NCBI GenBank assembly: GCA_902779125.1
Contig: CACZAC010000021.1
Coordinates: forward strand, 1 to 64,000
Source: an uncultured Bacteroidales bacterium
Lineage (GTDB): Bacteria; Bacteroidota; Bacteroidia; Bacteroidales; Muribaculaceae
Reading direction: 5' to 3'
Length of the DNA: 64,000 bases
The translations under genes were made by a program, and so were the position numbers. Under the pieces are notes generated by a model. It worked only from the letters and a program-made list of their open reading frames with translations, did not search any database and was not told the origin of the DNA. The stretch's first letter is position 1, and each line of letters starts with the position of its first letter. This document shows positions 3,768-62,490 of this stretch, in pieces.

Positions 3768-3912
3768 ACCGCGACAGCGTCCCTCTATGCCGCGGCTCCC
3801 GCCGCGGCCACCCCGTCCAGTATGTGGCATTGTCAACCCCACCACCGGCACCACCGCCGGCGACCCACCGCGACAGCGTCCCTCTATGCCGCGGCTCCCG
3901 CCGCGGCCACCC
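3768..3912. repeat. Two copies of the GC palindrome plus a degenerate GTGGC palindrome
   Basis: Copies at 3787-3809 and 3886-3908 share the leader CGCGACAGCGTCCCTCT and two GCCGCGGC arms around TCCC. Between them lies a degenerate copy (near 3824-3842) of the GTGGC/GCCAC palindrome that is perfect at 21545-21563. Confidence 0.9.
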
Positions 3913-4316
3913 TCATTAAAATTTAAATCTTTACTTTAATTCCCATTACATTTCTTGCGATTTTCCAATACTTTGCGCAGTATTTACACTACCGCCTTGC
4001 CCATATCAACCTCAGCGGTATGTTTCCCGTTGACAAAATGGCACCGCAGGAATTTTCCCGAGAAAAATCACTTTTCACGATGCAGGTAACCGCAGTAGCA
4101 TCGACAAGCATCGGCACCTCTCTAAACTCTCAGGAAACCCATTGGCCTCATTTCCCTCCAGTAAAAAAGACCATATCAACCATCTTTAGCCACCTGCACT
4201 GCACACAATACCGCACTACTTAGTCCAATAGGAAGCGATAACGACTTGATAATACGCTCATTCACTCTAAACCTGAAAACACCTTGTAAAAAAAATATAA
4301 AAAAAATGCTTAAAAA

Positions 4317-4348
4317 TTTACTGATTTAAAATATTATTTATAACTTTG
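4317..4348 (+). promoter_or_regulatory. sigma-ABfr-type promoter of the 4469 gene
   Basis: TTTA at 4317-4320, 20 nt, TAACTTTG at 4341-4348. Transcription would start near 4355, leaving a 5' untranslated leader of about 115 nt. Confidence 0.6.
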
Positions 4349-4468
4349 CGACCATAAATAAAACCGAATTATTGTGTTCAAACTACCAACATAGCTTAAA
4401 CATAACTAGAATTTATACTACTGTTTTTAATTACTTTTTATTATTAACCACTTAATTTATTCAGTTTT

Positions 4469-6346
4469 ATGAAGAAATTATTAGTACTTTTGTTTACCGC
4501 AGCTGTTGCTCTCGGCGCTTCTGCAGGTGTGAACAACATGCGCATCAACACCAAGATGAGCAAGACTAACGTGAAGGAAATGAAGGCTCAGGTTATGGAC
4601 CGTCAGATCCTGAAGAAAGGTGCTGTTCAGGACTTGAACGTTTTGCAGCTCAACGCTTTTGACGCAACTGCTCGTCCCAAGACCAACCACGCTCTGAAGG
4701 AGGGTGACACCTATTTCTGGGATTTCGAAGATGAAGCTCAGGCTAGCGACTGGACTGTTCTCGACGAGGACGGCGACGGCTTCAACTGGGAACTCATCAC
4801 TGGTGACGGCCTCACCACCCACAGCGGTGCCTATGTAATGTCATCCGCTAGCTATGACAATCCCACCTACACCGTGCTCTATCCCAACAACTGGCTCGTA
4901 TCGCCCTGGCTGCCCCTCCACGGCTACCTCGCATTCTATGCTTGTGGTCAGGATCCCAGCTATGCAGCTGAGGTATTCGGTGTTTACATCTACACCGCTT
5001 CCGATCCCGAGTGGAAGCAGATTGGTGCTGACGTCACCGTTACCGGCAACATGAAGCTTTATGCTTATGACCTCAGCGAGTATGAGGGTACCGAAGGTAC
5101 TCTGGCTATCGTTCACCACAACGTATCCGACATGTTCCGTCTGAACGTGGACGACATCACCATCGGTGACTTTGAGTACGTGCCCGAGCCCGAGCCCGAG
5201 ACTCCCACCGTTATCGAGAACATCCCCGATGGTCTCAACGTGATGACCTTCAACCGCAACACTGGCTACATCGCTAGCTCAATCTTCGGCATCAGCGCTG
5301 GTCACACCGATGGCAAGCTCAACGTTGCTTTCGACGAGGAGAATGGTGAGGTTTACATCCAGAACCCCCTCTGGTGGACCGACAGCTACAACACTTGGGT
5401 AAAGGGTACCTATACCGTTAACGAGGATGGCACTTGCCTGCTCTCTATCCCCACCGGCCAGTACCTGTATTGGAGTGATTCTTATCAGTATGGTATCCAG
5501 CTCATGTGGGGTTACAGCTACACCTACATTGATGGTCAGGATCCCGACACCGGCGAAGACCTCTACTACCTGGGCACCGCAGTTGACGACCGCGCTGAGG
5601 AAATCGAATTCCTCCTCGACGGCAACAACCTCTACCTCCTCAACGGTGAGGGTGACATCGATGCCGAGTTCCCCGAGTGGGCTAACGCTACCGGTATGAT
5701 GGGTATCTACAGCGACGACCTCAGCTTCATCTCTATCGAGTTCGCTAACGCCGAGGCTCCCGTGGGCGAGGTATTCGAATATGTTGATGCTATTCCCGCT
5801 AATCCCACCGCTGACGAGTGGTATGACTGTGGTGACGAGAGTGGTTACAGCCGCTTCTACTTCACTCTGCCCACCACCGACGTTGATGGCAACAAGATCG
5901 CTCCCGAGTACCTGAGCTACAGCATCTACACCGACAACGACCAGATCTTCACCTTCGACTACGACACTTACTACTATGACTTTGAGAACTTCGGTATCTA
6001 CGAGGATCTCACCGTTATCCCCTACGAGATGTACGTAAGTGGCTATGACTTCCGTCCTGGCTATTGCTACTTCTATCGCACCAACGAGGGTGACAACCCC
6101 ATGTTCGAGAACCGCATTGGTATCCAGGTACACTATGGTAAGGATCGCGCTATCAACTCCAGCGACATCGTTTACCTCGAAGTGTTCCCCAGCTCAAGCG
6201 TGAACGAGCTCAACGCTGGCAAGACTGTTGCTAACGTTCGCTACTTCAACGTTGCTGGTCAGGAGATGGCTCAGCCCCAGGGCATGACCATCAAGGTTAC
6301 CACCTACACCGATGGTACCACCAGCGCTGCTAAGGTTGTGAAGTAA
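4469..6346 (+). CDS. Secreted choice-of-anchor J protein with C-terminal sorting-type domain
   Basis: A 625-residue exported protein of unknown activity. Signal peptide: MKKLLVLLFTAAVALGASAG. Residues about 82-235 (TYFWDFEDEAQASDWTVLDE... NNWLVSPWLPL) look like a choice-of-anchor J domain. The rest is acidic and rich in Tyr/Asp. The last 45 residues (NVRYFNVAGQEMAQPQGMTI followed by KVTTYTDGTTSAAKVVK) form a conserved tail like the C-terminal secretion/sorting domains of Bacteroidetes (type IX-like), shared with the proteins at 15968-16945 and 39275-40498. Residues about 450-625 are paralogous to the 39275-40498 protein (FYRTNEGDNPMFENRIGIQV versus FYRTNMGDNPMFDWRIGIQV). Codon choice is strongly biased (GCT, GGT, AAC), suggesting high expression. 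Confidence 0.8.
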   Translation: MKKLLVLLFTAAVALGASAGVNNMRINTKMSKTNVKEMKAQVMDRQILKKGAVQDLNVLQLNAFDATARPKTNHALKEGDTYFWDFEDEAQASDWTVLDEDGDGFNWELITGDGLTTHSGAYVMSSASYDNPTYTVLYPNNWLVSPWLPLHGYLAFYACGQDPSYAAEVFGVYIYTASDPEWKQIGADVTVTGNMKLYAYDLSEYEGTEGTLAIVHHNVSDMFRLNVDDITIGDFEYVPEPEPETPTVIENIPDGLNVMTFNRNTGYIASSIFGISAGHTDGKLNVAFDEENGEVYIQNPLWWTDSYNTWVKGTYTVNEDGTCLLSIPTGQYLYWSDSYQYGIQLMWGYSYTYIDGQDPDTGEDLYYLGTAVDDRAEEIEFLLDGNNLYLLNGEGDIDAEFPEWANATGMMGIYSDDLSFISIEFANAEAPVGEVFEYVDAIPANPTADEWYDCGDESGYSRFYFTLPTTDVDGNKIAPEYLSYSIYTDNDQIFTFDYDTYYYDFENFGIYEDLTVIPYEMYVSGYDFRPGYCYFYRTNEGDNPMFENRIGIQVHYGKDRAINSSDIVYLEVFPSSSVNELNAGKTVANVRYFNVAGQEMAQPQGMTIKVTTYTDGTTSAAKVVK

Positions 6347-6390
6347 TCCACTAACCTTTAAGGCTAAATGTCCCTAACGGGACAAAAACG

Positions 6391-6427
6391 GTAGAGACGC
6401 AAAAATTTGCGTCTCTACTTGTTTTTT
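6391..6427 (+). terminator. Rho-independent terminator after the 4469 gene
   Basis: Perfect 13-bp stem (6391-6403 with 6406-6418, GTAGAGACGCAAA arm) with a 2-nt loop, followed by TTGTTTTTT. A smaller hairpin TGTCCC/GGGACA lies just before it (6369-6384). Confidence 0.85.
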
Positions 6428-6454
6428 GTCGCAAAAAAGCATTATTTTTGTGCT

Positions 6455-6916
6455 ATGGATAAAAACAAGACTTACCAACTCCTAGCCAAGCAGGTCGAGA
6501 GCCTCATCGAGGGCGAGAACAACACCACAGGACAACTGGCCAACGCTGCCGCTATCATCCACGAGACAATGGGATGGTGGTGGACAGGCTTTTACCTCGT
6601 CATTGACGGGGAACTCCAGCTCGGACCCTTCCAGGGACCAGTCGCCTGTTACCGCATCAAGCCGGGACGCGGAGTGTGCGGAACAGCATGGCAGCAGAAC
6701 CGCACCATCGTCGTCCCCGACGTCGAGCAGTTCCAGGGACACATCGCCTGCAGCAGCCTATCACGCAGCGAAATCGTCGTCCCCCTGCATGACCCGCAGG
6801 GAAACGTCATCGGCGTGCTAGATATCGACAGCAAGGACGTCGCCACATTCGACGACGTGGATGCCCAGGGGCTAGAAGCCATCGCACGCATCATCACGCG
6901 ACACGCCTTCAAGTAA
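6455..6916 (+). CDS. Free methionine-(R)-sulfoxide reductase (GAF domain)
   Basis: A 153-residue single GAF-domain protein that reduces free methionine-R-sulfoxide, part of oxidative damage repair in the cytoplasm. The three family cysteines are present: Cys65 (VACYRIKPGRG), Cys75 (GVCGTAW) and Cys99 (HIACSSLSRSEIVVP), with the ending GVLDIDSKDVATFDDVD typical of the family. The ATG at 6455 was chosen over an in-frame upstream start at 6407 because the latter lies inside the preceding terminator. A TATTTTTG box at 6443-6450 lies directly before the start. rarA follows after 24 nt, and yraN after that, so the three may be co-transcribed. Confidence 0.88.
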   Translation: MDKNKTYQLLAKQVESLIEGENNTTGQLANAAAIIHETMGWWWTGFYLVIDGELQLGPFQGPVACYRIKPGRGVCGTAWQQNRTIVVPDVEQFQGHIACSSLSRSEIVVPLHDPQGNVIGVLDIDSKDVATFDDVDAQGLEAIARIITRHAFK

Positions 6917-6940
6917 TCAGTTAATCCCAACAATTCCACT

Positions 6941-8248
6941 ATGAGCTACGAACCTCTTGCTGAACGCCTTCGGCCCCGCTCTCTCGACGATTACATCGGC
7001 CAGCGGCACCTCGTCGGCGACGGCGCCGTACTGCGACGCATGATCGAGAGCGGCAACATCTCTTCTTTCATACTGTGGGGCCCTCCTGGCGTCGGCAAGA
7101 CAACCCTCGCACGCATCATCGCCGAGCAGACCAAGGTGCCCTTCTACACGCTCAGCGCCGTCACCTCGGGCGTGAAAGACGTTCGTGAAGTCCTCGACCG
7201 ATGCCAGGCCGACGCCCGCAGCGTCTTCTCCAAGGGACGCCCCATCCTCTTCATCGACGAGATTCACCGCTTCAACAAGTCACAGCAGGACTCTCTGCTC
7301 GGCGCCGTCGAGCGCGGCACAGTAACCCTCATCGGAGCCACTACCGAGAACCCCTCCTTCGAGGTCATCCGCCCGTTGCTCTCCAGAGCACAGGTCTACG
7401 TCCTCAACCCCCTCGACCGCGACGACCTCCTCCAGCTGCTCGACCACGCCATCAAGACCGACAAGATGTTCCAGGACCGCGAAATCCGCATCGAGCAGAC
7501 CGAAGCCCTGCTGCGCTTCTCGGCAGGAGATGCACGCAAGCTCCTCAACATCCTCGACCTCATCATGCAGTCCCTGCAGGACGGCGAGCCCTTCGTCATC
7601 AACGACGACATCGTCACCAGCCGACTGCAGCAGACCCCCCTCGCCTTCGACAAGGGAGGCGAAATGCACTACGACATCATCTCAGCCTTCATCAAGAGCA
7701 TTCGCGGCAGCGACCCCGACGCCGCCGTCTATTGGCTCGCACGGCTCATCGCGGGCGGCGAGGACCCCAAATTCATCGCACGCCGCCTTTGCATTCTCGC
7801 CGCCGAGGACATCGGTCTCGCCAACCCCAACGCCCTGCTCTTGGCAAACGCCACCTTCGACATCATCAACAAAATCGGATGGCCCGAAGGACGCATCCCC
7901 CTCAGCGAATGCGCCATCTACCTGGCTACCAGCGCCAAGAGCAACAGTGCCTACCTCGCCATCGACGACGCCTTGGCGCTCGTCAACAACACCGGCAACG
8001 CCCCAGTTCCACTCCACCTGCGCAACGCGCCCACGGGCCTGATGAAACAACTCGGCTACGGCAAGGACTACATGTACGCCCACGACTACCCCGGCCACTT
8101 TGTCCGCCAGCAGTACATGCCCGAGGAACTCCACCACCCCCAAATCTGGCACCCCCAAGACAACCCCGCCGAGAACCAGATGACCGCACGCCAGCAAGCA
8201 CGCTGGGGCACACGGCCAGACGACGGCAACGCTCCTAAAAAAGATTAA
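6941..8248 (+). CDS. rarA: Replication-associated recombination protein RarA (AAA+ ATPase)
   Basis: 435 residues, the usual length for RarA/MgsA. It acts at stalled replication forks and is related to clamp loaders. Walker A is GPPGVGKT (residues 47-54), Walker B is LFIDEIHRF (103-111), sensor 1 is GATTENPSFE (132-141) and the arginine-containing RPLLSRAQVY follows. The C-terminal tetramerisation region (HYDIISAFIKSIRGSDPDAA, then YWLARLIAGGEDP) is intact. It sits between the fRMsr gene (24 nt upstream) and yraN (33 nt downstream) on the same strand. Confidence 0.95.
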   Translation: MSYEPLAERLRPRSLDDYIGQRHLVGDGAVLRRMIESGNISSFILWGPPGVGKTTLARIIAEQTKVPFYTLSAVTSGVKDVREVLDRCQADARSVFSKGRPILFIDEIHRFNKSQQDSLLGAVERGTVTLIGATTENPSFEVIRPLLSRAQVYVLNPLDRDDLLQLLDHAIKTDKMFQDREIRIEQTEALLRFSAGDARKLLNILDLIMQSLQDGEPFVINDDIVTSRLQQTPLAFDKGGEMHYDIISAFIKSIRGSDPDAAVYWLARLIAGGEDPKFIARRLCILAAEDIGLANPNALLLANATFDIINKIGWPEGRIPLSECAIYLATSAKSNSAYLAIDDALALVNNTGNAPVPLHLRNAPTGLMKQLGYGKDYMYAHDYPGHFVRQQYMPEELHHPQIWHPQDNPAENQMTARQQARWGTRPDDGNAPKKD

Positions 8249-8281
8249 ACAATCACTTTAAAGAACAATATACAACACAAT

Positions 8282-8662
8282 ATGTCTCAGCGAGGTAAAC
8301 TAGGAAAAGAAGGCGAACAGGCAGCTTGCGATTTCCTCATCAGCAAGGGTTACACCGTGCGCGAGACCAACTGGCGAATGGGCCACCTCGAGATAGACAT
8401 CATCGCACAAGAACCCCAAGCCAACACCCTCCACATCGTCGAAGTCAAGACCCGAACCACCGACCTCCACTTCGATCCCATGCAAGCCATCACCAAGGCC
8501 AAAATCCGCAACCTCGTCAACGCCGCCAACAGTTACATCGCCTACTACAACCTCCCCATGGCCATCCAGTACGACGTCATGATCCTCATCGGCACCCCAC
8601 CCAACCTCCACATCCAATTCATCCCCAACGCCTTCCAGCCCCCACTCCGCACCCTCCGTTAA
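8282..8662 (+). CDS. YraN-family (UPF0102) nuclease-fold protein
   Basis: 126 residues with the UPF0102 pattern: GKLGKEGEQAACDFLISKGY, then NWRMGHLEIDIIAQE and LHIVEVKTRT. The E...EID...EVK arrangement resembles the restriction-endonuclease-like (PD-D/E-x-K) core, suggesting a Holliday-junction-resolvase-type fold. The true substrate of the family is poorly known. Its position behind rarA fits a role in DNA maintenance. Confidence 0.88.
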   Translation: MSQRGKLGKEGEQAACDFLISKGYTVRETNWRMGHLEIDIIAQEPQANTLHIVEVKTRTTDLHFDPMQAITKAKIRNLVNAANSYIAYYNLPMAIQYDVMILIGTPPNLHIQFIPNAFQPPLRTLR

Positions 8663-8996
8663 AAAAAAACCACCGCCATCCCCGCCATGCCACCCCCGCG
8701 ACAGCGCCATCCCCGCCCCCGCGACAGGGTCGACTATGCCGCGGCTCCCGCCGCGGCCACACAGCCCGGTCCCCCATGCCGCGGCTCCGCCGCGGCCACA
8801 AGCAGCCATGTCCCGTGGGCGGCGGCTTTGCCGCCGTCACCACCAGCCCGCGCCCTTGCAGCCCGGTCCCCCATGCCGCGGCTAAGCCGCGGCCCCATCA
8901 CCACCATGTCTCGCGAGCACGAGCACGCCCCCGCCGCAACCGCGACAGGGTCCACTATGCCGCGGCTCCCGCCGCGGCCCCAACAATTAACTAAGA
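8663..8996. repeat. GC palindrome array between convergent yraN and the sensor kinase
   Basis: Four palindrome copies at 8736-8758, 8776-8797, 8873-8893 and 8957-8979, with loops TCCC, TCC, TAA and TCCC. A second palindrome type, GGCGGC-TTT-GCCGCC, lies at 8821-8835 after CCCGTGG. Leaders of the form CGCGACAGGGTCGACT precede the first and (as TCCACT) last copies. No gene seen. Confidence 0.9.
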
Positions 8997-11861
8997 TTAC
9001 CCGCCCGCCCCGTTGCGCACCTGCGACGGCGTCATGTTATAGTGCTGGCGGAACACCCTCGAGAAATACGCCACATCCGTGAAGCCGCACTGCTCCGCAA
9101 CGGCACCAATCAGCGTGTCAGGCTGCTGTTCCAGCAGGCGTTTAGCCTTCTCCATGCGCAGGCTAATCACATAGGCGGCAACATTCTTCCCCGACACCTC
9201 CTGCACTTTGCGTTTCATCTGTCCCTCGCCCATCTTCAGCTCTCGCGCCACCTTGTCGAGGTCAACCCTCGCCACGCCGGGAGCAATCTGGGCCAGCACC
9301 AGTTCATCAAAGCGCTCGAGGAAATCCGCGTCGGCAACATCATCGCTCACAGCCGCCCGCTCATCGCGCAACTCACTTAAACGATTACTATAGACTTCAC
9401 GCAGCATCTCCCTGCTCCTTAACAACTTGACAACCCACGCCATCAACTCTTCCGAGACAAACGGCTTCACCATATACACATCAGCGCCTGCCTCGATGCC
9501 GCGAATGCGGTCCTGGCTGCTGTTGCGGGCGCTCAGCATGATGATTGGGATGTGGCACAGGTGACGCGAGGCGCGCACCCGGCGGCACAACTCACAACCG
9601 TCCATGACAGGCATCTTGACGTCGGTGACGATAAGGTCAGGCCTCAGCAGGTTGGCCTTCGACAGGCCCTGCTCGCCATCATCGGCATAGTGTATCTCAT
9701 AGCCCTCACCCAGCGACGACCCCACCAGGCGAGCCACATCACTGTGGTCCTCGATAATCAGCACCTTGGGCAGGCCACAGCGGCGGTCCACTTCTTTTTC
9801 CTCCTCGGGTTGGCGATTATGGCGTTGCATCAGCGAACGCACGGGCTCCACAGCGAGCTCGAGACGCTTTTTCACACCCGGCACATACCGACGCGGCAAC
9901 TTCACGGTAAACACCGAACCGTTGTCAACCTCGCTTTCCACCGTCACACTCCCGCCCAGCGCCATCGCCATGTCACGAGCCACCGTCAGACCGATGCCCA
10001 CGCCCTCAACCAATCGCTCGGCGGTTGCGCCACGGTAGAACGGGTCAAACACATGCGACAGGTCTGCTTTGCTGATGCCCATTCCGTCGTCGGCAACACG
10101 GATGACAAATTCATCCCCTTCAAACTGTGACGAAACGGTAATCTTGCCGAACTCTCGCCCATAACAGATGGCATTCTCCAGCAGGCTGCCCACGATGGTA
10201 TTGAAATACTTGGGCACAACGTCCATGACCACCTCTTTCTCACACGGGGCATAGCTCAGCTCGATGTGCCTTTCCACGCAGTTATCGCGGTAGCTCTCCA
10301 CCAGCATACGCAGCAGCGCCACGGCATCGCCGTTCTGCCAGTCGGGTCCCTTGATAGCGCTGCGCACGCCACCCACCTCGAGAATACGGTCCACCAGCAG
10401 CAACAGATGGTTGCCCTGACGCTCAATAATCTCCACGTTATCAAGCTTCTCTGCGGTTTGGCTGTCGCCGATGATGCCGTCGATAGCACTCATGATGGCT
10501 GTCAACGGTGTACGCAGCTGATGAACAACATTGGTGAAAAACAGCGAACGCGTCTCCTCAATCTGGCGCATCACACGCTGAGTCCGGGAACGGACACGCA
10601 TCGCATACACCAACAGACCGATGACGCCGCCAGCCATAATCAGCAGCAACGCAATCATCAGTGCCATCAGGTTCCTCATGTGCTTCAACCGGGTGTTGTC
10701 CTTACTCAGGCTATCCATCTCACCCATCACACGCGTGCGCTCATAGTCCACATTCTGAGCCCTCAGCTCATCGCTCTTCTTCGGGCCATAAACACTGTCC
10801 TGCAGCTCAACGGCGCGCACATAATGCCGCAACGCCGACTGAGCGTCACCCTCCACCAGCGCCAAGTCGTGGTGAATCATGTGGGCCATCGACCGGTGGG
10901 CCACGCTACCACATTTCTCAGCCACAGCATCAGCCTCCATCAGATACGCCTTGGCCTCTCCGCGCTCATCCAGCTTCACGTCCACACGGGCCAGCGCCAG
11001 ACACGCGTCCAGCCAGTGCCAACGGTCATCCACCTCTTTCAGGATGTCATAGGCCTGCTTGTATTCATCCTCGGCATGTGAGAATCGCCGTTCTAGCTCA
11101 TGCAGCTCACCATAATGCAGATGGCACAACCCGATACCCAACTGACTGTTAGACATCTTGTTATATTCCATCGACTTGCGATAGTAAATCCACGCCGAGT
11201 CAATTTCGCCCATGGCCTGCTTTATCACCCCCAGGTTGGCATAGTTGATGGCAATACCCACATGGCGGTTCAGTTTGAGCTCACCCGACAAAGCCTCGCG
11301 CAGCACACTGTCAGCAACAGGATAGTTACACAATTCCAGCTCGATGTTGCCAATGCCATTCAACGCACGCACACGACCCGAAATCGCCTCCTTGCTCTCA
11401 CGGTCGCTATACTGGTCACACAGTTTCAACGCTTTATAATGGATATCATTGGCGCGCGCCAGGTCCAGCAACCGCCTGTAGTCAGTGCCCATATCATTAA
11501 GCGCAGTCACCATCTCGAGGGTATCCTCGGCAGCAGTAGCCAGTTCCAGACTCTGATTATGGTACCTGATAGCCTCATCAAACAGCGAACGGTCTCTAAG
11601 CCGCTTGCCACAGTACTTGCACGCCAGCATCTCGCCCATCACGTCTCCCGACTCATGATAGCCGCTCACCATCCCACGCAGGCTGTCAACATCGCTGACA
11701 CCTCTCAGCAGGCTGTCCAGTTCCGCATACCGCGCATCATCCCCGTGCAGGACAGCATTATGCCTGTCACACGACACACACGACACCATCACCGCAGCCA
11801 CAGCCAGAGCCACCAGCCACAGCGTCCCACTCCAGTCACTATTTCCATCCAAGCACCTCAA
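8997..11861 (-). CDS. Hybrid sensor histidine kinase / response regulator / AraC-type regulator with TPR sensor
   Basis: A one-protein two-component system. After an N-terminal hydrophobic segment ending in a possible lipobox-like VSCVSC come TPR-like helical repeats (about residues 60-360), a transmembrane helix (about 398-420, MALMIALLLIMAGGVIGLLV), HisKA with the phospho-acceptor in FFTNVVHQLRTPLTAIMS, HATPase (RVADDGMGIS, EGVGIGLTVARD), a receiver domain (DLIVTDVKMPVMDG) and a C-terminal AraC HTH (KRLLEQQPDTLIGAVAEQCG...MTPSQVR). Start is uncertain: the frame is open to 11975, but the promoter -7 box at 11895-11902 lies inside that extension, so I chose a TTG at 11861 (TTG at 11852 is also possible). 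Unlike classic Bacteroides HTCS proteins it lacks the beta-propeller sensor. Target genes unknown. Confidence 0.85.
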   Translation of the reverse strand: MRCLDGNSDWSGTLWLVALAVAAVMVSCVSCDRHNAVLHGDDARYAELDSLLRGVSDVDSLRGMVSGYHESGDVMGEMLACKYCGKRLRDRSLFDEAIRYHNQSLELATAAEDTLEMVTALNDMGTDYRRLLDLARANDIHYKALKLCDQYSDRESKEAISGRVRALNGIGNIELELCNYPVADSVLREALSGELKLNRHVGIAINYANLGVIKQAMGEIDSAWIYYRKSMEYNKMSNSQLGIGLCHLHYGELHELERRFSHAEDEYKQAYDILKEVDDRWHWLDACLALARVDVKLDERGEAKAYLMEADAVAEKCGSVAHRSMAHMIHHDLALVEGDAQSALRHYVRAVELQDSVYGPKKSDELRAQNVDYERTRVMGEMDSLSKDNTRLKHMRNLMALMIALLLIMAGGVIGLLVYAMRVRSRTQRVMRQIEETRSLFFTNVVHQLRTPLTAIMSAIDGIIGDSQTAEKLDNVEIIERQGNHLLLLVDRILEVGGVRSAIKGPDWQNGDAVALLRMLVESYRDNCVERHIELSYAPCEKEVVMDVVPKYFNTIVGSLLENAICYGREFGKITVSSQFEGDEFVIRVADDGMGISKADLSHVFDPFYRGATAERLVEGVGIGLTVARDMAMALGGSVTVESEVDNGSVFTVKLPRRYVPGVKKRLELAVEPVRSLMQRHNRQPEEEKEVDRRCGLPKVLIIEDHSDVARLVGSSLGEGYEIHYADDGEQGLSKANLLRPDLIVTDVKMPVMDGCELCRRVRASRHLCHIPIIMLSARNSSQDRIRGIEAGADVYMVKPFVSEELMAWVVKLLRSREMLREVYSNRLSELRDERAAVSDDVADADFLERFDELVLAQIAPGVARVDLDKVARELKMGEGQMKRKVQEVSGKNVAAYVISLRMEKAKRLLEQQPDTLIGAVAEQCGFTDVAYFSRVFRQHYNMTPSQVRNGAGG

Positions 11862-11894
11862 AGAAACGCAAGCATTAAAAACCTTTCCAACTCG

Positions 11895-11926
11895 CAAAAA
11901 TACAAAATAAACCCCACCCCTCCAAG
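11895..11926 (-). promoter_or_regulatory. sigma-ABfr-type promoter of the hybrid kinase
   Basis: On the minus strand: CTTG (11926-11923), 20 nt, TATTTTTG (11902-11895). It decides against start codons upstream of about 11885. Confidence 0.6.
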
Positions 11927-11984
11927 CCCCACCCCCATTTTTCCCCAAAAAAAAGAAAAAAAACCAAAAAACCACCCCATCCCG

Positions 11985-12300
11985 TCGGCAGCAGCAAGGT
12001 ACCCCCCGCGTCAGGGTCGACTATGCCGCGGCTCCCGCCGCGGCCCCTCCAGCCGCTTCGCCCGTCAGCGCCACCCCCGTCCCGTCGGCGCCCGCTCCAC
12101 CCCCGTCATCCCAGCAGCCCCTCCCCGCAGCCCGGTCCACCATGCCGCGGCTCTGCCGCGGCCCCTCCAGCAGCTTCACCCCTCAGCCCCACCCCCATCC
12201 CGTCGGCGCCCGCTCCTCCCCCGTCACCCCAGCCGCCCGCCTCCCGCGGCAGGGTCCCGCGGCAGGGTCGACTATGCCGCGGCTCCCGCCGCGGCCCAAA
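11985..12300. repeat. GC palindrome array (three copies)
   Basis: Copies at 12023-12045 (loop TCCC), 12142-12163 (loop TCT) and 12274-12296 (loop TCCC), in a strongly C-rich plus strand. GGGTCGACT leaders precede the first and third. The whole stretch 11862-12367 has no convincing gene; long open frames through it only spell repeat-derived peptides. Confidence 0.9.
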
Positions 12301-12351
12301 GAAAAAAAGAAAAAATTTCCCTCCCAGCCCCTCAGTATCAATAATAATGAT

Positions 12352-12359
12352 TATCTTTG
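12352..12359 (+). promoter_or_regulatory. -7 box 8 nt before the DUF4199 start codon
   Basis: TATCTTTG ends at 12359 and the ATG is at 12368, so the transcript would have almost no leader. No good TTTG -33 element at the right distance. Confidence 0.5.
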
Positions 12360-12367
12360 CAGTTTGT

Positions 12368-12907: not shown

Positions 12908-12931
12908 TACGATATACCTCTTTTTGACAAT

Positions 12932-53382: not shown

Positions 53383-53390
53383 TAGCAGCA

Positions 53391-54314: not shown

Positions 54315-54370
54315 AGTTTTCCCAAAATTGTGCTCGCCAAGCCGTTCATGCCCATAGACAATAGAGACGG

Positions 54371-54394
54371 CAGCATCTCTGTTACGAGATGCTG
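54371..54394. terminator. Hairpin between convergent genes
   Basis: CAGCATCTC (54371-54379) pairs with GAGATGCTG (54386-54394), loop TGTTAC. It lies between the SGNH-like gene and the minus-strand acyltransferase. Confidence 0.55.
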
Positions 54395-54437
54395 AAAATG
54401 GGATGAGCGTGTCGTCTAATCGATAATCGGGAGAGAA

Positions 54438-55427: not shown

Positions 55428-55541
55428 ATTATTATCCGTAATACTATTAAATGAAACCCCTTTCAAAAACCACAGGACCGAAGAATCTCATGGATTATAA
55501 GTTCCATTGGTAAAAATGAATTTGCGGAGGTTTAGCGGTTG

Positions 55542-55572
55542 CAAAGATAGTCATTTATTCAGAGATAACAAG
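55542..55572 (-). promoter_or_regulatory. Promoter of the acyltransferase-3 gene
   Basis: On the minus strand CTTG (55572-55569), 19 nt, TATCTTTG (55549-55542). Confidence 0.6.
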
Positions 55573-55690
55573 AATTATCTCATCATCCCACGTCGAAACC
55601 ATACCAGAACCGGTAGTGTTCCCGATGAGACACCACCGATTCCGGTAATCATTTCCTTTATTATTCACCCATTACGGGGATGGAGACTGT

Positions 55691-58117
55691 CTAGTCGTAT
55701 AAAGAGAGGATGGCATGCACGACTGCGTTTACATCGGCGATATTGAGCTCGCCGTCGTTGTTGACGTCCATTGTTATGTCTTGGGAATTCAACAGGATGG
55801 CTTTGACGATTGCATTGACATCGGCAATAGTGACCTCGCCGTCGTCGTTCAGGTCGCCAGTGAGCTGCACATGATTCTTGATTTCTGTCACATGAAGCAG
55901 AGGTCTGTCATTAAACACGTTGAAAATGAATCCCTTGACATCATATTGACTCCCTTTAACCATCGCGGACATGTCAATTCCATAATTGTTGTAAATCTCC
56001 AACTCATTGCCATACTTATCTCCCATTTTGTAAAGCATATTGTAACTTTGATTTACAAAGGTTAAATTATTCAACTGGACATAGTGATGCGTCATGTCGC
56101 GTGCCTGTGCCACATTAACCACATGAGGCTGTACCAGTGCTCCATGGTCGATGGGCGACCAATCTCCGACCGGGAAAATGAGAGGAATTCTGGCACTCTT
56201 AGTCCAGTGGCAGAGGACGTTGTCGATAAGGTCTCCGTTGCTGAAAGTGCCGTTGATGCTTCCAGATACCATTTCATCGACGCCATCGGCATCACGAACA
56301 TACATCAGCATGCCCCACTGGTAGATTGCCCTAAGCGGCTGTACAAATCTTGCCACGACATTGCCTGGCAACTCATACAGTTCGCTAATTGTCCTCACCT
56401 CAACCGTATCCTGTGGCAGAATAGGCAGCAGTCGATAGTGGACTTCGCCGGCATCATCAGTATAGCTGTGCACAATACCGGTTAACTCGTGGTAATGCCC
56501 CGAGGACAGGGGCTGGTCAAACAGGTTATATCCCTTGCAGGCATCGCCAGTGGCATCGGTCAAGACGAAGTTCCGATTGTTGATATCGCTTACCGTGACA
56601 TCATTCATCACTACATAGTGCGCCCAAAAATCATGGTTAACATCTTGAATGGTAATCAGTTCGGGCTCAATTTCCACATTTTGTATTGGTGACGATGTGA
56701 TTTTAGGGGCATCAAAACGCACCTCGCCATCGACAGTGGCTTTGGTGACACTGTAGGATGAGGTGTTCATGACGTCACCAGGGCACATGGGAGGTAATTC
56801 TCCATACAAGAGTCCATAGCCGGTAAAGTCCCTGGCAAATGTGTAAGAATCATGTTGGTAAAGGACGGTGGGTGTGAAATTGATAGTGAATTGTTTTCCG
56901 TCCGCCACTTGGCTATAGTCAGTCCCAAGCCCCTTGCGGTCAGGTTTATCGGTCAAGAACACGAAACCAGGGGCAACCACGATGGCATATTCGTCGGCTG
57001 GAACCGGAGGATCATCATCTATCACCATAGGGAAATAGAAATTCTGATAAATCGTACAGGTGTTGCCGTCCTGGTCAACAAGCGTTTTACCGCCTCTCCA
57101 AACCACCTGACGGAGGATGACAAAATGGCCTAAATGGCGTGTGTCGATTTGAGGAATCGAAATCTCCTCGGCCTCAAGCTCCTCATATCCGATAATGTTT
57201 CTATAGTTTGAAACATTTTCAAGCGCAGGCAAAGAATAATCTTGATGTTCAGCTACTGTGGCCGTCACATTGCCACCTGAGATGATATCTCCCTGATGCA
57301 GGCCAGACTCTGGCAAAAGAAATGCAGCATAACCCGTCTTGTCTTTCACAAAGACAAACTCTTGGTCAGTTGCCAGTACCGTCATGTCGTGATGCAGGGT
57401 AAGCGTTGTTCCAATGGGCGATATCGCGGCTTCGCCCAAGCCGCCTGTCCTGTCGATGAAGGTATAGGTGCGTGAAACCACATCGCTGACCTGACCGCCT
57501 CGCACAGTGATAGCCTTGACAGTAGTCGTTTTTCTCAGGATAAACGGTGAAGTATATTTTTTAGAATTTGGTGTGGGATTGGTGCCATCAAGTGTATAGC
57601 GAATCGAGGCGTTGTCTGTTGTGCACCACATGGACACTTCCAATTCGTCATAAATATCACCTTCGTCACTGGGGAGAATGTGCGGCGCACTGAGCGAGTC
57701 GCCATTTATAGTCACTGTTATTTGGGCAATCCTCACTTGTTTATTGGGCGCTGTGAAGACGATGCTCGCTTCGTTGCCCGTCCACAAGCCGTCGTTGTTG
57801 TTGGCGACATAATTGCCGACGTCAGCGGTCAGGTAAACGGGAGAATACTGCTGATCGGTCGATGAGACGGGACAGTCCATCTGCACCGAGGTAATCACGC
57901 TCTCTTGTGCAGTGATTGTACAGGTACTGCCTGGAAACATCACATAATAAGCGAATAATGACGCAGCACCAGACATAGTAAGTTTAACACCCTCTTTCTC
58001 AATGACATAGGGATTATCGACAGAGAGAACATCCACCCGAGGGTTAAACGTAACAGTCCTTGCGAGAACAGTTCCCGCAAACATACACAGAAACAAGGCA
58101 GACAACAAACGATTCAT
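55691..58117 (-). CDS. Large secreted protein with chitobiase-type and dockerin domains
   Basis: 808 residues. Signal peptide MNRLLSALFLCMFAGTVLA. Residues about 160-230 resemble the chitobiase/hexosaminidase C-terminal-type fold (ASIRYTLDGTNPTPNSKKYT SPFILRKTTTVKAITVRGG). The central part holds several beta-sandwich/OB-like segments (TVLATDQEFVFVKDKTGYAA). The end is a dockerin pair (GDLNDDGEVTIADVNAIVKA and MDVNNDGELNIADVNAVVHA). No catalytic domain recognised, so binding or structural role is possible. A second in-frame ATG at 58126 adds three residues. Confidence 0.78.
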   Translation of the reverse strand: MNRLLSALFLCMFAGTVLARTVTFNPRVDVLSVDNPYVIEKEGVKLTMSGAASLFAYYVMFPGSTCTITAQESVITSVQMDCPVSSTDQQYSPVYLTADVGNYVANNNDGLWTGNEASIVFTAPNKQVRIAQITVTINGDSLSAPHILPSDEGDIYDELEVSMWCTTDNASIRYTLDGTNPTPNSKKYTSPFILRKTTTVKAITVRGGQVSDVVSRTYTFIDRTGGLGEAAISPIGTTLTLHHDMTVLATDQEFVFVKDKTGYAAFLLPESGLHQGDIISGGNVTATVAEHQDYSLPALENVSNYRNIIGYEELEAEEISIPQIDTRHLGHFVILRQVVWRGGKTLVDQDGNTCTIYQNFYFPMVIDDDPPVPADEYAIVVAPGFVFLTDKPDRKGLGTDYSQVADGKQFTINFTPTVLYQHDSYTFARDFTGYGLLYGELPPMCPGDVMNTSSYSVTKATVDGEVRFDAPKITSSPIQNVEIEPELITIQDVNHDFWAHYVVMNDVTVSDINNRNFVLTDATGDACKGYNLFDQPLSSGHYHELTGIVHSYTDDAGEVHYRLLPILPQDTVEVRTISELYELPGNVVARFVQPLRAIYQWGMLMYVRDADGVDEMVSGSINGTFSNGDLIDNVLCHWTKSARIPLIFPVGDWSPIDHGALVQPHVVNVAQARDMTHHYVQLNNLTFVNQSYNMLYKMGDKYGNELEIYNNYGIDMSAMVKGSQYDVKGFIFNVFNDRPLLHVTEIKNHVQLTGDLNDDGEVTIADVNAIVKAILLNSQDITMDVNNDGELNIADVNAVVHAILSLYD

Positions 58118-58171
58118 AATAGTCATATTTTAAAATTATTACCTTTTTCCTCTAAAATGCCGCTCAAGAAT

Positions 58172-58738
58172 TTATTTCTTGACGCGGTCGGGGTGCTGTG
58201 CGATGAAGGATTTCCAGGATTTTGAGCCCTTGCCCTGGAAGGGCTTGTTGCGCTCGTAGAAGTGGCAAAGCGCTGCCGCGAGGGCATCGGTGGCGTCGAG
58301 CAGTGCTGGCATCTGAGCCTCGTCGATGCCCAGGGTGCGCTGGAGCATCATCGCCACCTGCTCCTTGCTGGCTGCACCGTTGCCAGTGATTGCCATCTTG
58401 ATTTTGCGGGGCTCATACTCGGCAATGGGTATCTCGCGGTTGAGAGCTGCGACCATCGCAACACCCTGCGCACGCCCCAACTTGAGCATCGACTGGACGT
58501 TCTTGCCGTAGAAAGGCGCCTCGATTGCCATCTCGTCGGGGAGGTACTCATCGATGACACCGCTCACGCGCTCGTAGATGTGCCTGAGGCGCATGTAGTG
58601 GTCCTCCATGCGGCTCAACTGCAAGACGCCCATGACGATGAGTTGCGGCTTCTTGCCATTGACACCCAGCAGCGCATAACCCATGACGTTGGTGCCCGGG
58701 TCGATGCCGATGATGATATTCTCAAACTCCCTCTCCAT
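58172..58738 (-). CDS. ruvC: Holliday junction resolvase RuvC
   Basis: 188 residues. The four catalytic acids match E. coli RuvC (D7, E66, D138, D141): Asp13 in [16 protein letters not shown], Glu73 in [11 protein letters not shown], Asp148 and Asp151 in [15 protein letters not shown]. It cleaves Holliday junctions in recombination and repair together with RuvAB, which are not in the window. A promoter (58753-58746) is only 8 nt from the start codon, giving an almost leaderless transcript. Confidence 0.96.
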
Positions 58739-58745
58739 CGTTGCG

Positions 58746-58777
58746 CAAAATTACAATTTTTCTGGTAAAAAAACAAC
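58746..58777 (-). promoter_or_regulatory. Promoter of ruvC with almost no leader
   Basis: On the minus strand GTTG (58777-58774), 20 nt, TAATTTTG (58753-58746), then ATG at 58738. Confidence 0.55.
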
Positions 58778-58825
58778 AATGGCCACGGATGAATCATCAG
58801 AAACCTGAAAGACCCACCCGTGGCC
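58768..58825 (-). terminator. Terminator of the amylase gene
   Basis: CCGTGGCC (58825-58818) and GGCCACGG (58788-58781) pair; on the minus strand it is followed by TTGTTGTTTTTTT. It overlaps the ruvC promoter region. Confidence 0.65.
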
Positions 58826-58840
58826 ACGGTTGCTTATCGA

Positions 58841-61800
58841 TTACCACTTATTGGAGAGGAGGTAATCAACGAGGGTTGTCACATCGCCGATGTCCAAGAG
58901 GTTATTCTGGTCACAATCGGCATTTGCCAGATTGATGGCCGTTGAATCACCATTCAACAGATAGTCGATGATTTCGGTTACATCGATGATGTCAATGTCA
59001 CCATCCTCGTTCACGTCACCCCTGACGACGGTGACCGGCTCGGTCCACTTCTCGACAACGAGAACGCGTCGTGACAGATAGAACGTGAGGTTGTACTTGC
59101 CAGTGCGAATCCTGAAGGAATTGGTGCCAGGCACCACGCTCAACTCGGTGCCCAGACGGGCATCGTTGATGAGGAAGTTGTTGCTGGTAGCGCCCATTCG
59201 GTCATTGGCAATCTCGTCCCAAGTGCTTCCCAGCGCGGTGGAGAAGCTGAAGTAGCTGTAGCCACCATAAGGATCGACAAAGTCGATGGTGGCGGTGTAC
59301 TTCTCACCATTGGTGGTGGTCATCTCATAGCCGTTGCTGGGAGACCATCCTGCAGAGTTGATGTTACCGAGGACATAAACCTTGTCATAGCTAGCTGCGC
59401 CGGCACCGGCATATTTCTCGGTCACGTCGAGATAGGTGTCGGTAGCGGGGTAGTTGTAGGTTGACAGGTCGCTGTTGGGATAGATGAAGAAGGCATCGCG
59501 CGTCACGGTGATGGTTGATGTCTGCTTCTCGAAGCCGCCAGTACCGGTGTTGAAGATGAGCGATACCTCGCTGGCATCGACATGGAGACGATTCCACTCG
59601 ATGTCGTTGACGGTCACCTTTTCAAGGCTGGAGATAGCCTTACCAGGCCAAGTGCTGCCCGTCACGCTGCCCTCGCTTGTCCAAGCCCAAATGTTGGCGC
59701 TGCTCGACGAAGACCTCACATAGATGTCGATGCCCGTCGTTGCAGCATCGGTGATGGTGTAGGTGTAGTTCTCGATATTCTCGACCTGGTTGCCGTTGAG
59801 GACACCCACCTTGAGGGTGGTGTTCTCGGTAAAGGTCATCGAGGTCGAGGAAGTAATCGTGGTGCTGGAAACCGTAGGCTCGCTGCCATCGGTGGTATAG
59901 ACGAGGGTCGTACCGCTCTTGCTGGGAGCGACGGTGAGCGTCACATTGCCCACATAGTTGCCAGCAGGCTTGTTGACCACGGGATAGCCCAGAATGCTGC
60001 CATCCTTGCCCACGTGCTGCCAGTCGATGCCGTTGCTGATGAACAGGTTGTATCCGTCACCGCCCTGGACCAAGGTATAGCCCGCCGGGGTGCCGTTGAA
60101 GACAGCACCGCCCACCTGCAGATAGAGGTTGCCGCGCGTGCCCTGGGTTTCCAGGATGTAACCGCCGCTGCTCTCCTGCTGCGTGAGGATGGCGCTCTGG
60201 TTGTGTACGCCAGCAGCGCGACGCGCCTTGATGCAGTTGTTGATTTCGTCGGTATAGACGAGGTAGTGCTTGTAGAAGATGCACGGGGTGCCCGGCATCG
60301 TCAGGATGAAGGCATTGGCCGGCATGATGTTGGTCTTGAGGCAGTCATAGTTGGAGCTTTGACCCGTGTCATGATTGTCGACGAAGGTCACCGAGTAGCG
60401 CTGGTAGTTGGGGTCAGCAGCCAAGCCCTTGTCATTCAAGGCGCTCCAGTTGCCAGCAGCAAAGGCGCTCTGCATCGGGTACTTCAGTGCGAAGTCGAAG
60501 ACGGCGGTCTGGATGCGTCCGTCCTGCTTGGTCTCGTTCAGCCACCAGCGGAGGGTCTCGGCGTTGCCGTCCCAGTACTCACCCACCGAGAACGTGGGCT
60601 GGCTTGCCTGGTTGTACAGACCGACGTAGTAGCCTGCATAGCCCTTGCACATATCGTAGCGGAAGCCGTCGTAGCCGAGTTCCTTCATCAGGTACTGCTG
60701 GTAGGTCTTGACGTTCTTCTGCACATTGGCGCTGGTGTGGTCCAGGTCACGGCTGCCGTCAAAGTCCTCGCCCTCGTCGGCAGCCCCCGTTGCTGCATAG
60801 CCAGAGCCGACGCACTCGTCGGTGCGGCAGATGTCGGCAAGTGACCAGGTCATGCTGTAGGTATCACACGTGACGGGACCGGTAACGGTCTCGTTGGCGA
60901 AGTCCACCCAACCGGTCTTGCCGCTCTTGTGGTTGATGACCATATCCATGAGGACACTGGTGTTGTGCTGGTGGAAGACATCAATCATCTCGCGCAACTG
61001 AGACTCGGTGCCGAAGCAGGAGTTGTGCTTGAGCCAGTAAACGGGCATGTAACCCATGCTCTGCCCTACTCCATTGGCATCGACGCTGCCCGAGTTGGGA
61101 ACCCACATCACATCGAAGTACTGACCCAGTTCCTGAGCCTCGTCGGTCAACGTGGACCAGCGCGTAGCCTTGTAGCTGTCCCAATAGAAGCCCTGAAGCA
61201 TGACACCGCCATACATCGCGGGCCATCCCTTGCCAGCCACGGGACCGCCACCTCCGTCACGCGTGATGACACAAGTGTGGTCGTTCACGTTCACCGTGAT
61301 GGTATAGGTGCCAGCGGGGATGCGGAATGCCACATCGATGTTCTCGCCGAACTGGTTCAAAGGAATGGTCTGTCCCAAGGTGGAAGAAGTTACCCAGTAG
61401 TTGCCCTCGCTCACGGGTGTGAGACGATAGGACTGGATAGAGGCCCAATCCTCGCTGCTGGCCGATAACTTGGTCGTGAAGGAGAAGTAGCTTACACTGG
61501 CATCCTCTTCGGACCACTCGCCGTTGAAAGTCACCTGAGAGGTGAAGATGTTGCCGTCGGTGGTGGTCATTTCCACACCATGTGACGGATCCCAGCTGTT
61601 GCCTTCGGCCTCGCCCAGAATGTAGAGGTGACCTGTCACGGGATTGACGGGGCCGCCACCGCTCTCATTGAAAATCCTGAAACGCTTGTTGATTGTGTCG
61701 AAGGTGAAGGTGTAGCTTGAACCGTTGCCCGTGAAGTAGTAAGCGCCGGCGCTACTCTTCTGGGTCGAAATCCAGGTGTCATTGGCCGAAACCGCCTGGT

Positions 61801-62071
61801 CGGTGCCATTGGGGCCATAACGATAGTTGTTGTTGAAGGTGTCCCAATCATCAGTTGATGAGGCCTGGTTGTCGGCAAAGACAAAATAGACCGTTCCGCT
61901 GATGGTTGTCGTCAGATTGTAGGTGCCGTCAGCCTTGGCATTCATGCGGACACCGCCGGCAGGGTTCCATCCGCCAAAGGGTCCATCGCCCACGATGAAC
62001 ATCTGGGCACTGGCTTGCAGCGTCAATAATGATACTGCAAGTGCTAGAAAAAATGTAAACGTTTTTTTCAT
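58841..62071 (-). CDS. Secreted alpha-amylase family (GH13) enzyme with starch-binding and dockerin domains
   Basis: 1076 residues with signal peptide MKKTFTFFLALAVSLLTLQA. Two N-terminal SusE/F-like beta modules (GGWNPAGGVRMNAKADG; NSWDPSHGVEMTTTDGN) precede the GH13 barrel: region I MDMVINHKSG (about 372), nucleophile Asp in GFRYDMCKGY (about 469), acid/base Glu in SVGEYWDG (about 494) and the Asp of VDNHDTG (about 564). Then come a chitobiase-type segment (LVYTTDGSEPTVSS), a CBM26-like module (IWAWTSEGSVTGSTW PG), a third N-domain-like copy (GWSPSNGYEMTTTNG) and a dockerin pair (GDVNEDGDIDIIDVTEIID). It cuts alpha-1,4-glucans outside the cell or at the surface. Confidence 0.9.
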   Translation of the reverse strand: MKKTFTFFLALAVSLLTLQASAQMFIVGDGPFGGWNPAGGVRMNAKADGTYNLTTTISGTVYFVFADNQASSTDDWDTFNNNYRYGPNGTDQAVSANDTWISTQKSSAGAYYFTGNGSSYTFTFDTINKRFRIFNESGGGPVNPVTGHLYILGEAEGNSWDPSHGVEMTTTDGNIFTSQVTFNGEWSEEDASVSYFSFTTKLSASSEDWASIQSYRLTPVSEGNYWVTSSTLGQTIPLNQFGENIDVAFRIPAGTYTITVNVNDHTCVITRDGGGGPVAGKGWPAMYGGVMLQGFYWDSYKATRWSTLTDEAQELGQYFDVMWVPNSGSVDANGVGQSMGYMPVYWLKHNSCFGTESQLREMIDVFHQHNTSVLMDMVINHKSGKTGWVDFANETVTGPVTCDTYSMTWSLADICRTDECVGSGYAATGAADEGEDFDGSRDLDHTSANVQKNVKTYQQYLMKELGYDGFRYDMCKGYAGYYVGLYNQASQPTFSVGEYWDGNAETLRWWLNETKQDGRIQTAVFDFALKYPMQSAFAAGNWSALNDKGLAADPNYQRYSVTFVDNHDTGQSSNYDCLKTNIMPANAFILTMPGTPCIFYKHYLVYTDEINNCIKARRAAGVHNQSAILTQQESSGGYILETQGTRGNLYLQVGGAVFNGTPAGYTLVQGGDGYNLFISNGIDWQHVGKDGSILGYPVVNKPAGNYVGNVTLTVAPSKSGTTLVYTTDGSEPTVSSTTITSSTSMTFTENTTLKVGVLNGNQVENIENYTYTITDAATTGIDIYVRSSSSSANIWAWTSEGSVTGSTWPGKAISSLEKVTVNDIEWNRLHVDASEVSLIFNTGTGGFEKQTSTITVTRDAFFIYPNSDLSTYNYPATDTYLDVTEKYAGAGAASYDKVYVLGNINSAGWSPSNGYEMTTTNGEKYTATIDFVDPYGGYSYFSFSTALGSTWDEIANDRMGATSNNFLINDARLGTELSVVPGTNSFRIRTGKYNLTFYLSRRVLVVEKWTEPVTVVRGDVNEDGDIDIIDVTEIIDYLLNGDSTAINLANADCDQNNLLDIGDVTTLVDYLLSNKW

Positions 62072-62161
62072 ATCCTGAAGTTTTTAAGTTATGGTTTGAA
62101 TTGCTTGGTTATTCAGATGGCGGTAGACCATAGCAGCGCATGATGGTCCCTTTGATGTGTC

Positions 62162-62169
62162 CAAAATTA
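62162..62169 (-). promoter_or_regulatory. Possible -7 box of the amylase gene
   Basis: TAATTTTG on the minus strand, leader about 85 nt; the -33 element is not convincing. Confidence 0.35.
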
Positions 62170-62244
62170 GTGATTCTTGCCCACATTATTATAAATACCA
62201 GTGGCAGCAGCTAGTAAAAATCAACGCAAACGATTGCACGTAAT

Positions 62245-62490
62245 GATGTAGTTAATAGTTAATAGTTAATAGTTGATAGTTGAGTTATGGCGGCAGAGCC
62301 GCTGCCCACGGGACATGCTGCTCTTGGGGCCGCGGCGGGAGCCGCGGCATAGGCGACCCTGACGCGCGGGGCAACCCTAATTGGGGCCGCGGCGGGAGTG
62401 GCGGCACAGGGGGACCCTGACGCGAGGGCAACCCTAATGGGGGCCGCGGCGGGAGCCGCGGCATAGGCGACCCTGACGCGGGGGCTGACG
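62245..62490. repeat. GC palindrome array (three copies) and AGTTAAT repeats
   Basis: AGTTAATAGTTAATAGTTAA plus AGTTGATAGTTGAG (62249-62283) leads into a GGCGGC-type palindrome (about 62289-62304) and GC palindromes at 62328-62350, 62385-62407 (imperfect arm GTGGCGGC) and 62442-62464. Right-half orientation. No gene between 62072 and 62578. Confidence 0.9.

What the first reader, a model, noticed from the sequence alone, without database searches (positions are those of the whole stretch)
3787..62464. Every palindrome left of 21.8 kb points one way and every one right of 38.9 kb points the other
Using the loop (TCCC-type versus GGGA-type) and the adjoining AT/CAT, all 18 left copies share one orientation and all 14 right copies the other, with no exceptions and no copies between. 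Orientation ignores the direction of the neighbouring genes. This is the pattern expected of replication-strand-polarised elements, like KOPS or Chi, with a strand switch between about 22 and 39 kb.
Basis: partly seen in the sequence, partly recalled or inferred. Interest (0 to 1): 0.78.

Follow-up and report, generated by a model that had tools for sequence, protein, structure and literature searches.

The report
Strand-locked palindrome arrays, rumen bacterium
Short palindromic repeats that are probably copied by a single-strand DNA transposase point one way on one side of a chromosome spot and the other way on the other side, and nearby genes show a mirrored DNA letter bias there too, which hints that the repeats record which DNA strand is exposed when the region is copied.

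Summary
A foot-plus-stem pattern finds 18 of 18 left copies on + and 12 of 12 right copies on -; a profile model gives 18 and 14. They form 7 left and 4 right arrays. They are not KOPS or Chi but REP elements: the same palindrome flanks, in inverted pairs, a HUH/Y1 transposase (RAYT) elsewhere in this genome and in two relatives. Of 62 genome hits, 35 are on this contig. The colinear relative G082 (RUG14590) has the same flip. Fourfold sites in genes, repeats excluded, go from strongly C-rich on + (left) to moderately G-rich (right). Over 76 partly overlapping REP loci in 8 genomes 55 agree with this rule (p=1e-4), but only 33 of 51 outside three clusters (p=0.049). Substitutions on the G000+G082 branch are mirrored: G>C left, C>G right; the right half rests mostly on genes of one strand. 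The switch is not at the origin marker; the terminus was not found. Best reading: REP arrays locked to local strand polarity, replication being the likely but unproven cause. A precedent exists in Pseudomonas fluorescens SBW25.

The parts
3766..3911 (+). left array 1: two REP1 elements (stems 3789-3808, 3888-3907)
8716..8982 (+). left array 2: REP1 at 8738 and 8959; shorter-loop REP2 at 8778 and 8875
12003..12299 (+). left array 3: REP1 at 12025 and 12276, REP2 at 12144
15567..15724 (+). left array 4: REP1 at 15589 and 15701
17068..17300 (+). left array 5: REP1 at 17091 and 17204, REP2 at 17278 (GGA loop, foot still + oriented)
19364..19409 (+). left array 6: single REP1
21477..21791 (+). left array 7: REP2 at 21502 and 21692, REP1 at 21593, degenerate copy at 21761
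38958..39206 (-). right array 1: four REP1
   Evidence: of 14 related loci printed, 1 has REPs at this site, and it is G082
45904..45950 (-). right array 2: single REP1 with compensated stem GCCGTGGC/GCCACGGC
51337..51764 (-). right array 3: five REP1 plus a partial copy at 51648
62325..62484 (-). right array 4: REP1 at 62329 and 62443, degenerate copy at 62382
1..29500 (.). left domain: + strand strongly C-rich at fourfold sites (excess -0.39 to -0.49 per 10 kb)
   Evidence: rarA 6941-8248 has coding skew -0.70 against a mean of -0.235 in 27 relatives
22000..38900 (.). switch zone without REPs (tRNA-Val, OMPs, ApbE, FAD-dependent oxidoreductase and Fe-S genes, GDPD)
44000..64000 (.). right domain: + strand G-rich after gene-strand correction (excess +0.08 to +0.24 per 10 kb)

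Best explanation
The palindromes are REP elements of a RAYT (TnpA_REP) family in an uncultured rumen bacterium of the Bacteroidales. Each unit is about CNGCG-CAGGGTCNNCTAT, then an 8-bp GC-rich hairpin with a TCCC loop, then CCC. The probable cognate single-strand transposase is encoded elsewhere in the genome, flanked by the same REPs. Shown: the unit and its covarying stem, the RAYT-REP linkage, the uniform orientation over long stretches, the flip, the same flip in G082, and the coincidence with a mirrored strand bias in genes. Inferred: RAYT captures or copies REPs only as single-stranded DNA, so a new REP takes the orientation set by which strand is exposed there; arrays then grow by local duplication, keeping orientation. 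The strand bias would come from the same asymmetry, most simply from forks that cross the left part one way and the right part the other way.
For: RAYT: Y1_Tnp match at C2:95218-95466, DHLH and YKGG motifs (read by eye), REPs on both sides in inverted pairs. R1 hits over 50 bits occur at 3 of 20 RAYT loci, the gene itself and its two closest homologues (90 and 77% identity); the other 17 have none over 25 bits. Stem: 176 of 176 cells paired, 8 double changes at 2 of 8 pairs. Orientation against gene-only skew: 55 of 76 loci (p=1.2e-4), 31 of 45 contigs (p=0.016), sign-flip p=0.0016. Neighbouring loci within 60 kb outside the two homologous clusters: same orientation in 11 of 12 pairs (p=0.006). 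Older polarity: the rarA side has the same sign, weaker (-0.10 to -0.26 against -0.48), in 8 of 9 relatives examined; 8 of these 9 have no R1 hit in the stretches used, and the ninth, G050, has one at C30:234917, which in window orientation is +, as in the left domain.
Against: Outside the three clusters agreement is only 33 of 51 (p=0.049); in G094 it is 12 of 22. Loci in a cluster share flanking windows, so the 76 are not independent. One pair of neighbours 57 kb apart on G000:C4 disagrees. RAYT-flanking REPs occur in both orientations. The G082 RAYT match has an in-frame stop, and G000 holds 7 RAYT-like matches, so the cognate enzyme is inferred from linkage. The flip is not at parS. The complete relative G004 shows no clear genome-wide skew in 20 sampled windows. 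In G050 the REP at C31:317 kb, 66 kb from parS, is - and one at 95 kb is +, which does not fit one orientation per replichore with an origin at parS. G>C transversions are not the usual replication-bias signature (recalled). No transposition was observed.
Confidence: 0.6

Rival explanations
1. Founder effect: one composite array landed left in + orientation and another right in - orientation, and each spread nearby by recombination or template switching, which keeps orientation. No link to replication is needed; the skew coincidence is accidental or follows from the arrays.
For: Left arrays share long flanks with each other, and REP1, REP2, REP3 and the heptamer tail flip together. Array contents differ between G000 and G082, so arrays turn over. 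Agreement with skew is weak outside clusters (33 of 51).
Against: Fourfold sites in genes flip too, polarised substitutions in genes are mirrored, relatives without REPs there already show the left polarity, and loci on other contigs and in other genomes lean the same way.
Confidence: 0.25
2. KOPS-like or Chi-like functional polar motifs: short sequences selected for orientation toward dif or for recombination.
For: Orientation is uniform on each side and flips once in the window.
Against: 62 hits in 3.35 Mb with 35 on one contig; 46-nt unit with covarying stem; linked to a transposase; strong hits in 9 of 101 genus genomes.
Confidence: 0.04
3. The switch is the chromosome's replication terminus or main origin in this lineage, and the arrays mark the replichore boundary.
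For: Skew goes from C-rich to G-rich along +, the usual sign at an origin.
Against: parS lies on C52 beside gidA in G000 and on C4 in G082, there more than 110 kb from the switch. No DnaA-box cluster. The skew is local. For a terminus the sign would be reversed, unless leading strands here are C-rich. dif was not found with E. coli or B. subtilis type patterns, which may simply not fit this group.
Confidence: 0.12
4. REPs act as RNA elements (terminators or 3' stabilisers) and orientation follows transcription.
For: The arrays lie between ORFs, and REPs are plausibly transcribed in other bacteria (abstract passage of PMC3733652).
Against: Orientation is opposite in the same gene setting (19386 against 45908), and left arrays lie between convergent, divergent and tandem ORFs alike.
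Confidence: 0.03

Closest known systems
REP/BIME elements with RAYT (TnpA_REP) in enterobacteria and pseudomonads
   Same: GC-rich hairpins with a conserved foot, between genes, in arrays; a Y1/HUH transposase gene flanked by inverted REPs
   Different: Foot is CTAT/CCAT, not GTAG or GGAG (those recalled); [quoted passage not shown] 35 of 62 hits on one contig
Tandem GI-GIII REP arrays of Pseudomonas fluorescens SBW25 (PMC3116915, section 12 read)
   Different: There at the scale of whole replichores; here the flip is within 17 kb, away from the origin marker, and goes with a local mirrored substitution bias in genes
IS608/IS200-IS605 insertion into the lagging-strand template (passages of PMC6006769)
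   Same: Y1 HUH transposases acting on single strands, with excision and insertion tied to the lagging-strand template
   Different: REPs are not complete insertion sequences; direct insertion of REPs was not shown; which strand is used here is unresolved
KOPS and Chi (recalled)
   Same: Orientation changes with strand
   Different: 8-bp genome-wide motifs with no transposase and no hairpin

Membership tests
REP-RAYT system | Y1/HUH transposase gene of the TnpA_REP type | tested here: met
   PF01797 E=2.2e-6, 28.2 bits against a cut-off of 23; DHLH, YKGG and YLDDNPR read by eye in the translation; no PDB sequence match
REP-RAYT system | transposase gene flanked by the REPs | tested here: met
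   G000 C2, G082 C5 and G100 C96, the gene and its two closest homologues; the G082 match has one in-frame stop
REP-RAYT system | many intergenic imperfect palindromes with conserved 5' foot | tested here: met
   62 hits at E<=1; foot C.AT and CAG.GT conserved in 22 aligned units; stem covaries
REP-RAYT system | GTAG or GGAG tetranucleotide (recalled for the GTAG class) | tested here: not met
   foot is CTAT/CCAT; this marks the GTAG class, not the whole kind, since the more distant RAYTs of this genus have other feet
REP-RAYT system | inverted REP pairs (REPIN/BIME) | tested here: inconclusive
   met at the RAYT loci; not met in the window arrays, which are head-to-tail
REP-RAYT system | RAYT acts on REP single strands | not testable with these tools
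   needs biochemistry
KOPS | short motif, skewed along whole replichores toward dif | tested here: not met
   35 of 62 hits on one contig, 46-nt structured unit
Chi | octamer at high density, largely inside genes, genome-wide (recalled) | tested here: not met
   between genes, low copy
oriC region | DnaA-box cluster and parS/gidA nearby | tested here: not met
terminus/dif region | dif site at the skew switch | tested here: inconclusive
   recalled E. coli-type pattern, up to 3 mismatches: 0 of 6 genomes; loose scan of fetched pieces gave only chance-like sites

The most novel reading that the evidence does not exclude
In the G000/G082 lineage a new local zone of divergent strand asymmetry, such as an ectopic replication start or a persistent single-strand-exposing structure near the glycerol-phosphate-like operon, has arisen inside a region that is colinear in the relative G050 without the flip. 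It drives strand-specific G-to-C mutagenesis over tens of kilobases and at the same time feeds single strands to a RAYT, whose REPs record the local fork direction like compass needles.
Probability: 0.2. Interest if true: 0.85.

Novelty: new variant of a known kind. Interest (0 to 1): 0.6.

Why it matters
How REPs move and what RAYTs do in the cell is, to my knowledge, still open. If REP orientation reads the exposed strand, REP maps become a test of single-strand, replication-coupled copying, and a marker of fork direction in genomes known only from metagenomes. The G>C (left) and C>G (right) substitutions in ordinary genes around the switch are a second oddity that no replication bias I can recall explains directly.

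Tried and rejected
KOPS/Chi, origin, terminus and RNA-element readings were tested as listed. A dif search with an E. coli-type pattern gave 0 of 6 genomes; a loose scan gave one B. subtilis-like core at G082:C3:137172, but it is a gene start with a 4-bp indel in G000, so I dropped it. The viral-contig scan for the core gave 0. A PDB sequence search with a 328-aa part of the RAYT gave nothing. The family-level search (397 sampled genomes) found REPs in 9 genomes, none of them complete, so a whole-chromosome orientation map was not possible. The second Y1_Tnp of the own-genome family search (C40) lies between copies of a different repeat.

Rows dropped before counts: leave out the RAYT loci of G000 C2 and G082 C5 (both orientations), hits under 34 bits, the G047 hit and two G100 hits seen only (C3:81453, C106), and the G050 copy at C30:234917 found later. 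G100:C96 is itself a RAYT locus and was kept as +, its weak - hit (26.3 bits) ignored. One search allowed ORFs over palindromes; removes them and splits loci by hand into 76. In one search I used 30 rarA loci of 93 matching genomes; G018 was not measured, and G082 was measured. In one search I printed 14 of 25 loci. In one search I used 9 relatives, picked mainly for contig length. One search counted three outgroup genomes twice (fetched by two routes); one search redoes it with each genome once, and its numbers are the ones given. Sites need at least 3 outgroups and 75% agreement. An earlier count of neighbours (11 of 11) overlooked a pair on G000:C4; the recount is 11 of 12.

Full report
What was checked. 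The window is bases 1-64000 of contig C21 (86,976 bp) in a 3.35-Mb, 97-contig genome. A script recovers 18 of 18 left copies on + and 12 of 12 right copies on -. Model R1, built from 22 elements, gives 18 + and 14 - in the window; one stem-only - hit at 17278 is outscored by the + reading of the same copy. The loop at 17278 is the one exception to the loop rule.

Chance. Copies in an array are partly duplicates of each other, so I count arrays: 7 left, 4 right. At most one switch among 11 random orientations has p=0.011. The same arrangement occurs in G082, colinear with C21: + from 53 to 111 kb, - from 128 to 186 kb, apart from two stem-only hits on the opposite strand of + copies. This is shared descent, not a second draw, though array contents differ.

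What the elements are. The 46-nt unit has an invariant CAG.GT and C.AT foot before an 8-bp stem in the 22 aligned copies. The stem keeps 176 of 176 cells paired with double changes at 2 of 8 pairs (perfect stems were required when the sequences were chosen, which favours this). Elsewhere in the genome the unit flanks a 371-codon ORF with a Y1_Tnp domain (E=2.2e-6) at C2:94.4-95.9 kb, in inverted pairs. Among 20 RAYT loci tested, R1 hits over 50 bits appear only at the gene itself and its two closest homologues, in G082 (90%, with one in-frame stop) and G100 (77%); many of the more distant ones have other palindromes of similar design. G000 holds 7 RAYT-like matches, so the cognate is inferred from linkage. 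R1 hits occur in 9 of 101 genus genomes at E<=1e-8, 40 of 101 at E<=0.001, and 9 of 397 sampled family genomes at E<=1e-8, in 1 of 30 genera (stricter filters, few candidates scored per genome). The arrays also contain a shorter-loop palindrome (REP2), a GGCGGC-TTTG-GCCGCC palindrome (REP3) and a heptamer tail, and these flip together (REP3 and tail by eye).

Strand composition. Raw GC skew is about -0.25 at 8-22 kb and slightly positive over much of the right part. To remove the repeats and the gene-strand effect I used fourfold sites of ORFs not overlapping palindromes and subtracted the coding-strand mean. The + strand excess on C21 per 10 kb is -0.39, -0.49, -0.39, -0.13, +0.16, +0.08, +0.24, +0.01, -0.16; G082:C3 has the same shape. 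In 37 windows of up to 20 kb from relatives, without R1 hits, the SD is 0.112 and the range -0.288 to +0.271: the left arm is outside this range, the right arm is not. rarA in G000 has a coding skew of -0.70 and in G082 -0.65, against a mean of -0.235 (SD 0.073) in 27 relatives, none with a strong palindrome in the 1.5 kb on either side.

Orientation against composition elsewhere. Over 76 loci in 8 genomes, 55 agree with the rule '+ REP where + is C-rich' (p=1.2e-4; loci in clusters share windows). Outside the clusters C21, G082:C3 and G050:C21 it is 33 of 51 (p=0.049); one vote per contig gives 31 of 45 (p=0.016) and 28 of 42 outside clusters (p=0.044); a sign-flip test over contigs gives p=0.0016. 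By genome: G000 13 of 18, G082 13 of 17, G050 8 of 8, G100 7 of 8, G094 12 of 22, the last no support. Neighbouring loci within 60 kb agree in orientation in 27 of 30 pairs, and in 11 of 12 outside the two homologous clusters; the exception is on G000:C4. The signal is real but modest outside clusters.

Substitutions. With ancestral states inferred from relatives, each counted once, changes shared by G000 and G082 at fourfold sites on the + strand are, left: G>C 28 of 95, C>G 1 of 241; right: C>G 21 of 140, G>C 2 of 238; middle: G>C 9 of 136, C>G 6 of 427. Part of this follows codon preference, since left genes are mostly + and right genes mostly -. The cleaner test uses left genes on -: shared plus single-lineage G>C 11 of 33 against C>G 1 of 36 (p=0.001), opposite to codon preference, though from only two genes. 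On the right the matching test is weak (3 of 51 against 6 of 403 in the middle, p=0.07).

Order of events. In 9 relatives with rarA the rarA side has a negative excess in 8 (-0.10 to -0.26) and +0.04 in G078, where the neighbourhood is rearranged. Eight of the 9 have no R1 hit in these stretches; G050 has one strong copy at C30:234917, which in window orientation is + and lies in the left-type domain. So the left polarity seems older than the arrays there, and G000/G082 exaggerate it. On the right, relatives are near zero or negative (G050 -0.10, G094 -0.08, G067 +0.02; G068 and G061 rest on 2 and 3 ORFs), while G000 and G082 are +0.16 and +0.15. G050 is colinear with G000 at the eight marker genes, so the flip is not an inversion relative to it.

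Replication. A parS pair lies beside gidA on C52 in G000 (gidA and uvrC named by eye from the translations) and on C4 in G082. The window has 3 DnaA boxes against 4.0 expected, none between 22 and 44 kb. So the switch is not an ordinary oriC. dif was not found. Around parS in G050 the excess is small (-0.07 to +0.12 per 10 kb). G004, a single-contig relative, has no REP hits and no clear genome-wide skew in 20 samples. The link to fork direction stays an inference.

Literature. PMC3116915 (section 12 and passages) reports SBW25 tandem REP arrays, five forward near 2 Mb and six reverse near 4 Mb: the closest precedent. PMC6006769 (passages) describes lagging-strand targeting by IS608-type transposases and says that TnpA_REP of E. 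coli needs single strands. The listings of searches for REP orientation against replication or skew, or for RAYTs in Bacteroidetes, showed no report of this pattern; subscription papers are mostly not held, and most listed papers were not opened.

Verdict. The system is a new variant of REP-RAYT. KOPS/Chi and an origin are not supported; a terminus is open.

Noticed in passing
51224-58138: About 6.9 kb with MBOAT and dockerin-type genes has no match in the colinear G082 contig (140931-141266); the extra DNA abuts the REP array at 51.3-51.8 kb.
   Followed up: partly
8997-11975, 17312-19309, 19435-21453: These ORFs lie in stretches 77-79% identical to G082 while several neighbouring stretches are 95-97%; the last two have no Pfam match.
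   Followed up: no
L018 (C40:36019-36375 and flanks): The second Y1_Tnp of the genome lies between copies of a different repeat, GGGACAAAGGGACGGTTCTTTTGTCCCA.
   Followed up: no
L010:9739-10218 (-): The RAYT has a C-terminal extension of about 159 residues after the Y1 match with no Pfam match.
   Followed up: no
8971-9000, 17289-17318, 19398-19427, 62250-62280: A heptamer repeat of the AACTATTAACTATTAACT kind ends many arrays and flips with them.
   Followed up: partly
L208-L224: Many distant RAYT homologues in the genus carry their own palindromes, often with 3-nt loops and GGTCC/GGACC-type flanks, suggesting RAYT-REP co-diversification.
   Followed up: partly
L199:1-10000 (G095:C11): A stretch without R1 hits has a fourfold-skew excess of +0.41: strong local strand asymmetry also exists without these REPs.
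   Followed up: no
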